From Oscillatoria salina IIICB1 (GTDB lineage: Bacteria > Cyanobacteriota > Cyanobacteriia > Cyanobacteriales > SIO1D9), in NCBI RefSeq assembly GCF_020144665.1, contig NZ_JAAHBQ010000163.1, positions 1 through 64,000 on the forward strand: 64,000 bases of DNA, given 5' to 3'. Below, one piece after another: positions 14,393-20,503 of this stretch. The position numbers were made by a program, and so were the translations under genes. The notes under the pieces were generated by a model. The model had not been told where the DNA came from and did no database searches. It saw only the letters and a list, made by a program, of their open reading frames with translations. Within the stretch, counting starts at the first letter, position 1. The number at the start of each line of letters is the position of its first letter.

Positions 14393-15679
14393 ATGCTTAT
14401 CGAATTTAGTATTGGTAACTACCGATCTTTTAAAGAGCCAGTCACCTTTAGTATGGTGGCAGCTAACCTCGTCGCTAAAGAGAAAAAGCTCGATGAAAAT
14501 AATCTTTTTGCCGTAGACAAGGAATTAAAATTGCTTAAAAGTGCTGCTATATATGGAGCCAATGCTAGTGGTAAAAGTAATCTAATCAAAGCCTTAAACT
14601 TCATGAAATGGTTGATGGTTAATTCATCTAAAAATACTCAAAGTACAGAGGAAATAGAGACAGAACCTTTTCGACTGAGTACCGAGACAGAAACAAAACC
14701 ATCTTACTTTGAGTTAGTATTTATCATGAATGGGCAAAAATATAGGTATGGATTTGAAGCAACCCGAAAAAGAGTGACATCTGAATGGCTATTTTACGTC
14801 CCTAAGAGCAGGGAGACAATGCTATTTGAACGCGAACTTGACACTATTAAAACTTCTAAAAAGTACAATGCCGATGGGATTCAGCAAAAGACTAGAAATA
14901 ACGCACTTTTTCTCTCTGTTTCGGCTCAATTTAATGTGGAACTAGCAGAGCAAATTTTATATTGGGTTACTGACAAATTGAATATCATTTCTGGTTTACA
15001 CGACCAAACATACTTAAATTATACAGTTAGGTGTTTACTCGGCAACAAAAATAGAAATGACATTATTCAGTTAATCAAAAAATTGGATTTAGGAATTAAT
15101 GAAATACAAGTCGAACAGGTAGATTTTACGAGTGATTCTCTACCTAAAGAAATCCCAGATGAACTTAAGAAACTCATTGTTAAAACAGAAGGAGGTAGGG
15201 CAACTTCAATAAAAACTATACACCGAAAATTTGATGAGAAGGGAAACTATCAGTCACTCGAAGAGTTTAATTTAAGAAGTAATGAATCTGAAGGAACACA
15301 AAAAGTTTTTGCCTTAGCGGGTCCACTGATAACCGCTCTCAAAGAGGGAGAAGTTCTGATTATTGACGAGTTTGATACAAGGCTTCATCCTCTAATTAGT
15401 TTGGCAATTGTTGAATTATTTAATTCTCAAGAAACAAATCCAAATAATGCTCAACTAATCTTTGTAACTCATGATACTAATTTGCTCAGTAATAAAATTT
15501 TTCGTAGAGATCAGGTTTGGTTCACTGAAAAAAATAGATATGGTGCAACCGATTTATATTCTCTAGCAGAGTACAAAATACGCAATGATGCTTCATTTGA
15601 GAGTGATTATATTAAAGGCAAATATGGTGCAATTCCATACATTGGAAACTTGAATCATTTAATTGACTCTCATGGCTAA
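14393..15679 (+). CDS. AAA15-type ATPase, RloA/AbiLi-like
   Basis: 428 residues. The N-terminus (IEFSIGNYRSFKEPVTFSM) is the start typical of AAA15/OLD-like ABC ATPases. Walker A is GANASGKSN at 55-63; the C-terminal half has the ABC signature region (RSNESEGTQKVFAL), Walker B with GEVLIIDEFDTRLHP and the switch histidine in FVTHDTNLL. Insertions between Walker A and B are shorter than in SMC proteins. Such ATPases pair with RloB-like proteins in AbiL-type abortive infection and RloAB modules, where they probably sense or regulate the effector. The stop overlaps the next start by 8 bases (ATGGCTAA), so the two are co-translated. Confidence 0.88.
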   Translation: MLIEFSIGNYRSFKEPVTFSMVAANLVAKEKKLDENNLFAVDKELKLLKSAAIYGANASGKSNLIKALNFMKWLMVNSSKNTQSTEEIETEPFRLSTETETKPSYFELVFIMNGQKYRYGFEATRKRVTSEWLFYVPKSRETMLFERELDTIKTSKKYNADGIQQKTRNNALFLSVSAQFNVELAEQILYWVTDKLNIISGLHDQTYLNYTVRCLLGNKNRNDIIQLIKKLDLGINEIQVEQVDFTSDSLPKEIPDELKKLIVKTEGGRATSIKTIHRKFDEKGNYQSLEEFNLRSNESEGTQKVFALAGPLITALKEGEVLIIDEFDTRLHPLISLAIVELFNSQETNPNNAQLIFVTHDTNLLSNKIFRRDQVWFTEKNRYGATDLYSLAEYKIRNDASFESDYIKGKYGAIPYIGNLNHLIDSHG

Positions 15680-16268
15680 AAGAAAGAAGCATTCTCGTGG
15701 ATATTCGCCTAGGAAAGTTAATAATCGAGAAGTTAAGCAAAGATTCTTGATTGTTTGTGAAGGAGAGAAAACTGAGCCTAATTATTTTAGGAGTTTTCGA
15801 GTTCCTAAAAAAGTTATAAATGTTAAAGGATTGGGAAAAAACCCTAGTAAATTAGTTAATCGTGCGAAAGAATTGCAAGAGCAAGAAGATTACGATCGCG
15901 TATGGTGCGTTTTCGATCGAGATTCTTGGACTGTAGAAGATTTTAATAACGCGATCGCAAATGCTAAAAATGAGTGTATTGAAGTAGCTTATTCTAATGA
16001 AGCATTTGAATTATGGTACGTTTTGCACTTTGAGTTTCTCAATACTGGTATTCCCAGAAAAGATTATATTAAAAAATTGAATTCTCTCCTTAAACAGACG
16101 TATCATAAAAATAGCGAAACAATTTATGATGAGTTATTTGACAAACAAGCTATTGCTATTAAAAATGCTACAAATTTACTTAAACAATACGAGCCTCCCA
16201 ATCCTTCTCAAGATAATCCGTCTACCACTGTGCATTTGTTAGTGCAAGAACTAAACAAATCTATTTAA
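15672..16268 (+). CDS. RloB/AbiLii-like protein with TOPRIM-like fold
   Basis: 198 residues from the ATG at 15672, which overlaps the stop of the upstream ATPase; a TTG three codons earlier is also in frame. The basic N-terminus (KRKKHSRGYSPRK) leads to RFLIVCEGEKTEPNYF, with the catalytic-type Glu of a TOPRIM domain, and VWCVFDRDSW gives its DxD. A further conserved segment is YSNEAFELWYVLHF, typical of RloB. The C-terminus is helical. Family members are predicted nucleases and are the likely effector in AbiL-type phage defence. Naming follows family resemblance; phage resistance here has not been shown. Confidence 0.88.
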   Translation: MAKRKKHSRGYSPRKVNNREVKQRFLIVCEGEKTEPNYFRSFRVPKKVINVKGLGKNPSKLVNRAKELQEQEDYDRVWCVFDRDSWTVEDFNNAIANAKNECIEVAYSNEAFELWYVLHFEFLNTGIPRKDYIKKLNSLLKQTYHKNSETIYDELFDKQAIAIKNATNLLKQYEPPNPSQDNPSTTVHLLVQELNKSI

Positions 16269-16377: not shown

Positions 16378-16746
16378 TTACCCCAGTGTCAACTCTCCTG
16401 TAGGAAAATCTACTACTAATCGCTTTCTTCTCAACCACTGTAAACCCAACAAAACTTCGGGAATTCCTTCACTAGCGTGGACTGGAATTATAAACTCTCT
16501 TCTATCTATCACCACTTTTCCTTCATACAAATCAAAAAATTCTTCTCCTCGTACTGTCTGCATTGAGCGACTAAACTCCATCACTAACCAACCTAAACTT
16601 TCTGCATCCTGAATATTAACTGCTAACCAACCTGTAGTAAAACCTGTATCCAGTAAGCCATCAACGATAATACTTTCTGCATCAATGCTAATTAAGTCGA
16701 GGGGAAAAAACAATTCTCCTGCATTACCAAAACTACCAGAAATCAT
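16378..16746 (-). CDS. Retropepsin-like aspartic protease domain, copy A
   Basis: 122 residues, the size of one retropepsin-like (clan AA) monomer. The active motif is LLDTGFTTGWLAV near residues 31-43, with hydrophobic strands following (YEGKVVIDRREFIIPV) and the conserved LLGLQWLRRKRLVVDF near the end. These proteases work as homodimers, each giving one DTG. The start overlaps the stop of the upstream small protein (ATGA). It is a paralogue of the gene at 17143: about half of residues match, but the last 53 coding bases are identical. In copy A the DTG loop has one extra residue. The substrate is unknown; the partner protein is the obvious candidate for target or inhibitor. Confidence 0.8.
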   Translation of the reverse strand: MISGSFGNAGELFFPLDLISIDAESIIVDGLLDTGFTTGWLAVNIQDAESLGWLVMEFSRSMQTVRGEEFFDLYEGKVVIDRREFIIPVHASEGIPEVLLGLQWLRRKRLVVDFPTGELTLG

Positions 16747-17060
16747 ATTTTCCCACAGGTTCCTGTTTCGTTAACCTGGAAAATTACCATCCACATATTC
16801 GCATATTTTTGACGAGCTTTTTCCATAGCAATATTTTCATCAAGATCGAGAAAATAATCGCCACTATTTGGTTCAATAACGACAAACCAATTAGCTTTAT
16901 TCTCTTTTAATTCTGGATAGATTTTCTCAAAAATTTCCCGACAACGTTGACCGCGTTTATTTCGTTCGTCTTTGCGTCTAGCTAACTCTTCGGGAGAAAT
17001 AGTGTTTTCTGGGAAGATTCTGCCGCGACGAGCATTTATTTGCGAGGATAATCCTGTCAT
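16743..17060 (-). CDS. Small partner of retropepsin-like protease, copy A
   Basis: 105 residues, family not recognised. Shared with the second copy at 17502: an N-terminal ARRGRIFPE-TISPEE box (residues about 11-25), a basic helix with QRCR-IFE-I-PEL, the core NWF--IEP-S-DYF-D near 58-72, a KAR-K helix and a C-terminal NETG-CG-I ending. The arrangement, a charged helical start followed by a small alpha/beta core, suggests a soluble regulator. The TGA stop overlaps the protease ATG by four bases, so output is coupled. The gene order (partner first, protease second) resembles toxin-antitoxin and zymogen-type pairs, which is inference. Confidence 0.75.
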   Translation of the reverse strand: MTGLSSQINARRGRIFPENTISPEELARRKDERNKRGQRCREIFEKIYPELKENKANWFVVIEPNSGDYFLDLDENIAMEKARQKYANMWMVIFQVNETGTCGKI

Positions 17061-17142
17061 TACGAAATCCTGAATTTAGTATAGTTATATTTTACTGTAA
17101 TTTATCTATTGAGCAGTTAATTTTTGTCAACTTTAATCCTAC

Positions 17143-17505
17143 TTACCCAAGTGTCAACTCTCCTGTAGGAAAATCTACTACTAATCGCTTTCTTCTCAAC
17201 CAAGGTACACCGATGATTGTTTCTCTAAAATCTGCTCCCGCAACTGCTGGAACAATGAATTCTTCCCCATCAATTATCACTTTGGCGGCGTAATTTTCAA
17301 AAGTTGTTATTCCTCTTGCTGTTACTACTTGTCTAGTGCCAATTTGCTCCCACTCTAGAGCCTCTAAATCTTGCTTGTCGATTGCTAGCCATTCAGTTGA
17401 ACCAGTATCTAACAAAGCATTTATTGAGAAAATTTCACCATTACCAGCTACCAATTCAATCTCAAAAAATAGCTGTCCAATTTCATCAAACTCACCTTGA
17501 ATCAT
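17143..17505 (-). CDS. Retropepsin-like aspartic protease domain, copy B
   Basis: 120 residues when started at ATG 17505; an ATG four codons earlier is possible, but 17505 reproduces exactly the ATGA overlap seen in copy A. The active site is LLDTGSTEWLAID, a canonical DTGS. Later strands (YAAKVIIDGEEFIVPA) and IIGVPWLRRKRLVVDF match clan AA retropepsins. The region holds no integrase, reverse transcriptase or capsid gene, so it is not a retroelement piece but one of the small stand-alone bacterial proteases. The paralogue sits immediately downstream, so the pair arose by tandem duplication. Confidence 0.82.
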   Translation of the reverse strand: MIQGEFDEIGQLFFEIELVAGNGEIFSINALLDTGSTEWLAIDKQDLEALEWEQIGTRQVVTARGITTFENYAAKVIIDGEEFIVPAVAGADFRETIIGVPWLRRKRLVVDFPTGELTLG

Positions 17506-17819
17506 ATTCGTCCGCAAACTCCGGTTTCATTGAGCCGAAAAGTACCAAATAATTTATGAGGATGTTTTTCTCGTGCTTTCTGGATAACATTAACATCTTC
17601 GCGATCGATAAAATAGTCTTCGCTTTCTGGTTCAATGGCAATAAACCAGTTATAATGTTCTTCAATTAATTCTGGACGAATACGCTCGAAAATTAAACGA
17701 CAGCGTTGATGAAAGGCTTCGATTTCTGCTTGTTTTTTCGCTCTTTCTTCGGGAGAAATAGTTCTTTCGGGGAAGATTCTGCCGCGACGCGCAATTCGCT
17801 GAGATTTGATTTCACTCAC
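17502..17819 (-). CDS. Small partner of retropepsin-like protease, copy B
   Basis: 105 residues, exactly the length of copy A. Conserved boxes are ARRGRIFPERTISPEE, QRCRLIFERIRPEL, NWFIAIEPESEDYFIDRED and the NETGVCGRI tail; the linking segments differ strongly from copy A, as expected if only these boxes matter. I recall the NWF-IEPESGDYF-D signature in many small cyanobacterial hypothetical proteins but know of no function. It is the promoter-proximal gene of the four-gene cluster, reading toward the protease. The start ATG at 17819 is 50 bases from a perfect 30-base palindrome. Confidence 0.78.
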   Translation of the reverse strand: MSEIKSQRIARRGRIFPERTISPEERAKKQAEIEAFHQRCRLIFERIRPELIEEHYNWFIAIEPESEDYFIDREDVNVIQKAREKHPHKLFGTFRLNETGVCGRI

Positions 17820-17868: not shown

Positions 17869-17898
17869 TGTAGAGACGTTGCATGCAACGTCTCTACA
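17869..17898. repeat. Perfect 30-bp palindrome, TGTAGAGA/TCTCTACA family
   Basis: The sequence is fully self-complementary over 30 bases, beginning TGTAGAGACGTTGCA. It lies three bases before the pepP stop codon, between divergently placed gene ends and starts. Related hairpins with the same 8-base ends occur at 20608-20637 and 26064-26093. It may act as a transcription end or be a dispersed palindromic element. Confidence 0.8.
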
Positions 17899-19841: not shown

Positions 19842-20135
19842 ATGTCTACAATTACTGATATCGGTACGCTAATTGTTACTACTCCAGACACTTGTGGAGG
19901 TCGTCCGAGAATTGCCGGAAGAAGACTTTCAGTACAGCAAATTGCCGTTTTAACGAAACAGGGATTAACTCCGCCAGAAATTGTGAGAGAATATGAAAAT
20001 CTGACTTTAGCAGAAGTTCATGCAGCCTTAGCTTATTATTATGCTAACCAAGAGCAAATTGAGCAGTATTTAGCTGAGGAAAAAGCCCAATACGAGCAAA
20101 TGTTAGCAGAATATGAGGCTGGTAAACCCAAGTGA
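19842..20135 (+). CDS. DUF433 antitoxin-like protein
   Basis: 97 residues. DUF433 proteins are winged-helix-like antitoxins; the conserved CGGRPRIAGRRLSVQQIA (about 18-35) and the GLTPPEIVREYENLTLAEVHAALAYYYAN core are all present. The C-terminal EEKAQYEQMLAEYEAGKPK is a helix likely to wrap the toxin. The last bases overlap the next start (GTGA), the usual order of antitoxin then toxin. The pair is expected to autoregulate its promoter. Confidence 0.9.
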   Translation: MSTITDIGTLIVTTPDTCGGRPRIAGRRLSVQQIAVLTKQGLTPPEIVREYENLTLAEVHAALAYYYANQEQIEQYLAEEKAQYEQMLAEYEAGKPK

Positions 20136-20503
20136 GTCAAATTTGTTTGTATCTTGACGAAGATGCTAGTCGAGGAGATTTGATTAAAGCTTTACGCAAT
20201 GCTAATATTGATTTAATAACTACTTCGGAAGCTGATAATTTAAGTTGTAGCGATCTAGAACAGTTAGTTTGGGCAACTGCAAACAATAAGGTTATTTATA
20301 CCTATAATATGGGTGATTATTGTCGATTGCATACAATTTACATGGTTGAAAGTAGAGAGCATACAGGCATTATTGTTGCTGAAAGACAAAGTTATTCGAT
20401 AGGAGAACAGTTGCGAGGATTACAAAGATTAGTTTTAGCTATATCCGCAGAGTCAATAAGAAACCAGTTGGTGTTCCTTGGAACTTATATTCGGAATGAA
20501 TAA
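20132..20503 (+). CDS. DUF5615 PIN-like toxin
   Basis: 123 residues from GTG 20132, overlapping the antitoxin stop by four bases. DUF5615 (Mut7-C-like PIN) features are seen: LDEDASRGDLIKALR with acidic residues at the start, the ITTSEADNLSCSDLEQLVWA segment and YTYNMGDYCRLHTIYM, where the Asp completes a PIN-type metal site, then HTGIIVAERQSYSIGEQLRGL. Such toxins are predicted ribonucleases held inactive by DUF433 partners. Activity is inferred from family. Confidence 0.88.
   Translation: MSQICLYLDEDASRGDLIKALRNANIDLITTSEADNLSCSDLEQLVWATANNKVIYTYNMGDYCRLHTIYMVESREHTGIIVAERQSYSIGEQLRGLQRLVLAISAESIRNQLVFLGTYIRNE

What the first reader, a model, noticed from the sequence alone, without database searches (positions are those of the whole stretch)
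16378..17819. Duplicated small-protein/retropepsin cassette: possible undescribed two-component protease system
Two adjacent two-gene units have the same layout: a 105-residue partner (ARRGRIFPE...NWF-IEP...NETG-CG-I boxes) overlapping by ATGA with a 120-122 residue retropepsin-like protease with a clear DTG. Boxes and order are conserved while linkers diverge, so both proteins look functionally constrained together. Tight coupling and tandem duplication suggest a toxin-antitoxin, protease/inhibitor or signalling pair. No known retroelement gene is present. The pair sits next to an AbiL/RloAB-type module.
Basis: partly seen in the sequence, partly recalled or inferred. Interest (0 to 1): 0.72.

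Follow-up and report, generated by a model that had tools for sequence, protein, structure and literature searches.

The report
Small-protein/retropepsin gene pair, possible toxin–antitoxin
Cyanobacteria carry many copies of a two-gene unit, a small unknown protein followed by an HIV-protease-like enzyme; the enzyme almost never occurs intact without the small protein but is often lost while the small protein stays, so the pair may be a poison-and-antidote system with an unusual poison, which is untested.

Summary
In detail: two tandem minus-strand cassettes, each a 105-aa partner overlapping by ATGA a 120–122-aa clan AA protease. AlphaFold2 gives a retropepsin fold; the nearest solved structure is Rickettsia APRc. 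The partner matches no Pfam, NCBIfam, PADLOC or PHROGs family and no clear PDB fold.

In 60 genomes of the same order, 61 of 62 close proteases have the partner directly upstream; the exception is a fragment at a contig end. Two sister subfamilies, also cyanobacterial, repeat the pairing (56 of 57). Loss is strongly one-sided: partner intact with protease broken or absent 27 and 34 times, the reverse 1 and 2 times. Inspected orphan partners keep only the first few to ~37 protease codons and lack the catalytic aspartate. Copies lie on at least 27 plasmids, several beside partition genes, at 0–16 per genome, with none found in phage records.

The best reading is a toxin–antitoxin-like module: the partner neutralises, or otherwise makes tolerable, a retropepsin-like protease. 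Toxicity, binding and cleavage are untested. Adaptor/activator and substrate models remain. The AbiL neighbour is incidental: no homologue in 86 other cassette loci. I found no paper describing the pair.

The parts
17502..17819 (-). cassette 1 partner, 105 aa (GTG start); RRGRIFPE tail, long helix, IEPESEDYFID strand box, NETGVCGRI tail
   Evidence: ORF and sequence; alignment A1/A3; AF2 model pLDDT 84; no Pfam/NCBIfam/PADLOC/PHROGs match
17143..17505 (-). cassette 1 retropepsin-like protease, 120 aa, LLDTGSTEWL; overlaps the partner stop by ATGA
   Evidence: TIGR03698 5.8e-9, below the curated cut-off; retropepsin fold, APRc Z 13.0
16743..17060 (-). cassette 2 partner, 105 aa
   Evidence: 52% identical to the cassette 1 partner; alignment A1 (19)
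16378..16746 (-). cassette 2 retropepsin-like protease, 122 aa, LLDTGFTTGWL; overlaps the partner stop by ATGA
   Evidence: 50% identical to the cassette 1 protease; TIGR03698 2.6e-8, below cut-off; alignment A2 (20)

Best explanation
Each cassette most likely works as a toxin-antitoxin-like module. The upstream 105-aa partner is made first; translation then passes through the ATGA overlap to the protease, so the protease is made next to its partner. I infer that the partner binds the protease (active-site cleft or dimer interface, perhaps through its conserved floppy RRGRIFPE and NETGxCGRI tails) and keeps it harmless. When partner supply falls, for example after loss of the plasmid or under stress, the freed protease would dimerise, form the DTG/DTG active site and cut host proteins. 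Shown here: the coupling, the retropepsin fold and conserved DTG motif, joint inheritance, one-sided decay, and plasmid partition-region location. Inferred: binding, neutralisation, toxicity, target and trigger.
For: Protease almost never without partner: 61 of 62 close proteases (the exception is a fragment at a contig end) and 56 of 57 in sister groups (the exception has its partner about 1.1 kb upstream). Exact ATGA in 81 of 85 pairs and 51 of 64. One-sided decay: 27 v 1 and 34 v 2; in the 15 orphans translated, and in L198 (109), the remnant is only the first few to ~37 codons and the catalytic Asp is gone. Natural experiment: sister plasmids L197/L198 have ParA 99% and partner 94% identical, but L198 keeps only a 16-codon open protease frame. 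Plasmids: 27 records, divergent from a ParA gene with an integrase nearby in several; two unrelated ParA types (24-26% identity) carry the cassette in the same divergent position. Up to 16 partner matches per genome, tandem copies, 62 of 149 genomes. Joint inheritance r = 0.865 against a null maximum of 0.097. Retropepsin fold.
Against: No direct evidence of toxicity, binding or proteolysis. The partner has no recognised antitoxin DNA-binding domain and no conserved operator was found: the palindrome upstream of cassette 1 is a dispersed repeat. Decay counts are not independent events (G036 and G059 share cassettes), so the p-values are too small. Translational coupling alone could bias which gene is lost. 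Orphan antitoxins are common in known systems, but orphan toxins are also reported as abundant in E. coli (PMC10790755), so the asymmetry is suggestive, not diagnostic. Joint inheritance can come from linkage alone.
Confidence: 0.5

Rival explanations
1. The partner is an activator or targeting adaptor: it recruits or positions substrates for the protease, and the pair does a specific processing job, as other protein factors do for the known bacterial A2 peptidase RimB.
For: Strict pairing and coupling are equally expected. Bacterial A2 peptidases are described as involving other protein factors for activation or in a cascade (PMC11957791). Conserved low-confidence tails on the partner could bind substrates.
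Against: If each gene were useless alone, loss of either should be about equally common; instead the protease goes first, 61 against 3. Plasmid partition-region location and many divergent copies per genome suit a maintenance module better.
Confidence: 0.25
2. The partner is the substrate: the protease cuts its own partner (for example in a conserved tail) and the product carries the function, as in a sensor or signalling pair.
For: Two strongly conserved regions of low predicted order flank the partner core; strict pairing.
Against: Partners remain intact after protease loss in about a third of cases, with no sign yet of relaxed constraint, though shared history dominates that estimate. No downstream signalling gene is consistently linked.
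Confidence: 0.1
3. The cassette is an ordinary accessory operon whose protease is optional; the partner has an independent useful role, so the protease is simply lost more often.
For: Orphan partners are intact and common; dN/dS of orphans is like that of paired partners, 0.22.
Against: Does not explain why proteases are almost never found without a partner, or why orphans so often still carry a short protease remnant, which points to recent loss rather than a long partner-only existence.
Confidence: 0.12

Closest known systems
Clan AA aspartic protease TIGR03698 (clan_AA_DTGF) / prokaryotic single-domain clan AA peptidases (COG5550, COG3577)
   Same: About 120 aa, one DTG, hydrophobic-Gly motif, stand-alone gene; hits 2.6e-8 and 5.8e-9. 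The family is noted as widely distributed in alpha-proteobacteria and present in archaea, with little known about it (PMC2642776).
   Different: The window proteases score 34-36 bits against a cut-off of 57.35. The obligatory upstream partner is not part of the family description I could find.
Retropepsin-like bacterial proteases RimB (Pseudomonas), RloA (P. aeruginosa) and APRc (Rickettsia)
   Same: Retropepsin fold; APRc is the top PDB match, Z 13.0, rmsd 2.3 over 112 residues. RimB acts with RimA and RimK (PMC11957791).
   Different: No rimK-like neighbour in the 12 annotated plasmid regions read; no match here to a RimB family. RloA proteins have signal peptides (PMC12239564); the window proteases start directly at the first strand.
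Type II toxin-antitoxin systems
   Same: Small overlapping genes, putative antitoxin first, plasmid-borne, multi-copy, orphan antitoxins (compare PMC7192599).
   Different: No known toxin or antitoxin family matches; no DNA-binding domain recognised; I found no paper on an aspartic-protease toxin.
Retroviral/retroelement proteases (MEROPS A2)
   Same: Fold and DTG active site.
   Different: Not part of a polyprotein; paired instead with a small protein unrelated to any family by the searches used.

Membership tests
Clan AA retropepsin-like aspartic protease | Retropepsin fold | tested here: met
   AF2 pLDDT 91.6; APRc TM 0.72/0.66, E 4e-7 (68); Z 13.0 (71)
Clan AA retropepsin-like aspartic protease | Catalytic DTG motif | tested here: met
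   90 of 94 non-redundant paired proteases have DTG, 2 more DSG; both window copies DTG
Clan AA retropepsin-like aspartic protease | Homodimer with aspartate dyad; proteolytic activity | not testable with these tools
   Monomer prediction only; no bench data
TIGR03698 (clan_AA_DTGF) | Score above the curated cut-off of 57.35 bits | tested here: not met
   Window proteases 34.1 and 36.2 bits; sister-group proteases 65.4 and 89.8 bits pass. The window copies are relatives, not curated members.
Type II toxin-antitoxin | Two small co-directional overlapping genes, putative antitoxin first | tested here: met
Type II toxin-antitoxin | Toxin not kept intact without antitoxin | tested here: met
   61 of 62 and 56 of 57; decay 27:1 and 34:2
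Type II toxin-antitoxin | Toxin inhibits growth and antitoxin neutralises it by binding | not testable with these tools
   No experiment and no complex prediction available
Type II toxin-antitoxin | Antitoxin DNA-binding domain / operator autoregulation | tested here: inconclusive
   No Pfam match for the partner; long upstream palindromes in 9 of 94 loci only and the one in the window is a dispersed repeat (87)
Type II toxin-antitoxin | Member of a known toxin or antitoxin family | tested here: not met
   No Pfam, NCBIfam or PADLOC toxin/antitoxin match; PDC-M08B only 0.0031 and in one of 27 members
RimABK | rimK-type ligase beside the protease | tested here: not met
   None annotated in 12 plasmid neighbourhoods

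The most novel reading that the evidence does not exclude
A large family of toxin-antitoxin modules in cyanobacteria whose toxin is a retropepsin-like aspartic protease and whose antitoxin is a new protein family acting as a direct protease inhibitor. At least three subfamilies would share this plan, serving plasmid maintenance or defence.
Probability: 0.4. Interest if true: 0.82.

Novelty: new variant of a known kind. Interest (0 to 1): 0.6.

Why it matters
Retropepsin-like proteases in bacteria have few known jobs. A strictly paired, plasmid-borne, frequently inactivated version gives a concrete hypothesis, an aspartic-protease toxin with a dedicated inhibitor, that can be tested in common laboratory cyanobacteria. 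It would add a new enzyme class to toxin–antitoxin systems, supply a natural protein inhibitor of a retropepsin, and give a role to hundreds of proteins now annotated only as 'hypothetical protein' and 'aspartyl protease'.

Tried and rejected
AbiL/RloB as functional neighbour: no homologue in 86 other cassette loci. Phage origin: no hit in viral contigs, phage records or PHROGs. Operator palindrome upstream of cassette 1: a 28-bp dispersed repeat with 40 genomic copies; other long upstream palindromes occur in few loci. Clan AA genes of the VDTGA type (about 150 aa): no partner was seen in the dozen or so loci inspected, so they were left out. Natural partner–protease fusion in G027:C98: a damaged reading frame (N-terminus missing, frameshift), not a clean fusion. 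DUF433/DUF5615 pair (19842–20503) as a decay control: single-sequence queries were too weak and DUF433 occurs in many contexts, so it was not used. PDB fold search for the partner: no clear match. PADLOC PDC-M08B: weak, one member only. My guess that the partner is DUF5678: not returned by any Pfam scan; dropped as unsupported.

Full report
OBSERVATION. On the minus strand, two cassettes lie head to tail: partner 17819–17502 and protease 17505–17143, then partner 17060–16743 and protease 16746–16378. Each protease start overlaps its partner's stop by ATGA. The partners are 52% identical and the proteases 50%. The first-stage description is accurate.

THE PROTEASE. It hits TIGR03698, clan AA aspartic protease, at 2.6e-8 and 5.8e-9, below that family's curated cut-off. 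Pfam gag-asp_proteas and Asp_protease_2 are matched weakly by most members of the alignment. The AlphaFold2 model (pLDDT 91.6) is a retropepsin; the closest solved structure is Rickettsia APRc (Z 13.0, rmsd 2.3 over 112 residues). Of 94 non-redundant paired proteases, 90 keep DTG and two more have DSG, so catalysis appears to be conserved. Activity was not tested.

THE PARTNER. There is no match in Pfam, NCBIfam, PADLOC or PHROGs. The model (pLDDT 84) is one long helix followed by strand-strand-helix-strand. Both ends, RRGRIFPE and NETGxCGRI, are nearly invariant yet modelled with low confidence; they may be ordered only when bound to something, which is inference. No PDB fold stood out.

DISTRIBUTION. 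In the order of the host, 62 of 149 genomes have the partner, up to 16 matches in one genome. A scan of one genome per species found 526 relatives; the 80 kept are cyanobacterial apart from one assembly labelled Gracilibacteria. There are 27 plasmid records and none in phage or viral collections.

COUPLING. Among loci found through the partner, 85 of 99 partners have the protease next, 81 of the 85 with exactly ATGA. Searching 60 genomes with both profiles independently, 61 of 62 close proteases have the partner immediately upstream; the exception is a fragment at a contig end. More distant DTGF proteases in the same genomes also have a small upstream gene of the same plan. Profile comparison links those partners to ours (probability 97%, E 6e-11), and 56 of 57 of their full proteases have it upstream; in the remaining case the partner lies about 1.1 kb away. 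Clan AA genes of the VDTGA type show no partner in the dozen or so inspected.

ONE-SIDED DECAY. In the 60 genomes there are 52 intact cassettes, 27 with the partner intact and the protease broken or gone, 1 with the reverse, and 14 with both broken. The sister groups give 53, 34, 2 and 15. I translated the sequence after 15 orphan partners: each keeps the ATGA and only the first few to about 37 codons of the protease, ending before or without the catalytic aspartate. The ATGA itself is not independent evidence, because its TGA is the partner's stop codon. The counts include related genomes (G036/G059), so the binomial p-values (2e-7 and 2e-8) are too small, but the direction is the same in both data sets. 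Two sister plasmids show the step directly: ParA 99% and partner 94% identical, protease present in one and cut to 16 codons in the other.

CONTEXT. On several small mobilisable plasmids the cassette lies divergent from a ParA gene with an integrase nearby. Two unrelated ParA types (24–26% identical) have the cassette in this position; among plasmids with ParA 94–97% identical, one carries a cassette only about 60% (partner) and 72–76% (protease) identical to the others, so the slot is kept while the cassette differs. In the window the neighbour is an AbiL-like ATPase with RloB, but no homologue lies near any of 86 other cassettes examined.

SELECTION AND JOINT INHERITANCE. Median dN/dS is 0.21 for both genes, and pairwise distances of partner and protease correlate at r = 0.865 (shuffled maximum 0.097). 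Linkage alone can produce the latter. The orphan-partner value (0.22) reflects mostly shared history and does not show that orphans remain under selection.

INTERPRETATION. The pairing is real and probably old, since it spans three diverged subfamilies. The strongest discriminating fact is the asymmetry: if the partner were simply an activator, losing it first should be about as frequent as losing the protease first, and it is not. That fits a protease that is costly without its partner. Orphan antitoxins are well known (PMC7192599), but orphan toxins are also reported as abundant in E. coli (PMC10790755), so this is support, not proof. I put a toxin–antitoxin-like protease/inhibitor pair at about 0.5, an adaptor or activator at 0.25, with substrate and independent-partner models behind.

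NOVELTY. Searches of open-access full text found no paper on TIGR03698, none combining retropepsin with toxin–antitoxin, and none combining aspartic protease, toxin–antitoxin and cyanobacteria. The library does not hold most subscription papers, so this is absence of evidence only. The protease class is known; the obligatory partner and the module behaviour appear undescribed.

LIMITS. No complex prediction, no experiment, no survey outside cyanobacteria, draft genomes in which some stop codons may be errors, and decay counts not corrected for shared ancestry.

Noticed in passing
window 14393-16268 (+): AbiLi-like AAA ATPase plus RloB (PADLOC AbiLi 2.7e-106; Pfam RloB 2.5e-51), convergent with cassette 2; not conserved beside other cassettes.
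   Followed up: partly
window 19842-20503 (+): Overlapping DUF433 (97 aa) and DUF5615 (123 aa) genes, a layout typical of toxin-antitoxin pairs.
   Followed up: partly
window 17870-17897: 28-bp perfect palindrome GTAGAGACGTTGCATGCAACGTCTCTAC upstream of cassette 1; 40 copies within two mismatches in the genome, so a dispersed repeat.
   Followed up: yes
G000:C68:19302-19699 (L003) and G000:C57:33773-34036 (L007, L177): Two further cassettes in the same genome, of two subfamilies, each with an intact partner and a protease reduced to its first residues.
   Followed up: yes
L141-L158: Protease breakpoints in orphan cassettes cluster in the first third of the gene, before the DTG codons; the search favoured short remnants, so whether this is a hotspot or selection is open.
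   Followed up: partly
L160, L015, L025: Tandem partner-partner-protease arrays with partners 30-50 bases apart.
   Followed up: no
L044: A cassette on a contig assigned to a Gracilibacteria assembly, probably misbinned cyanobacterial DNA (not tested).
   Followed up: no
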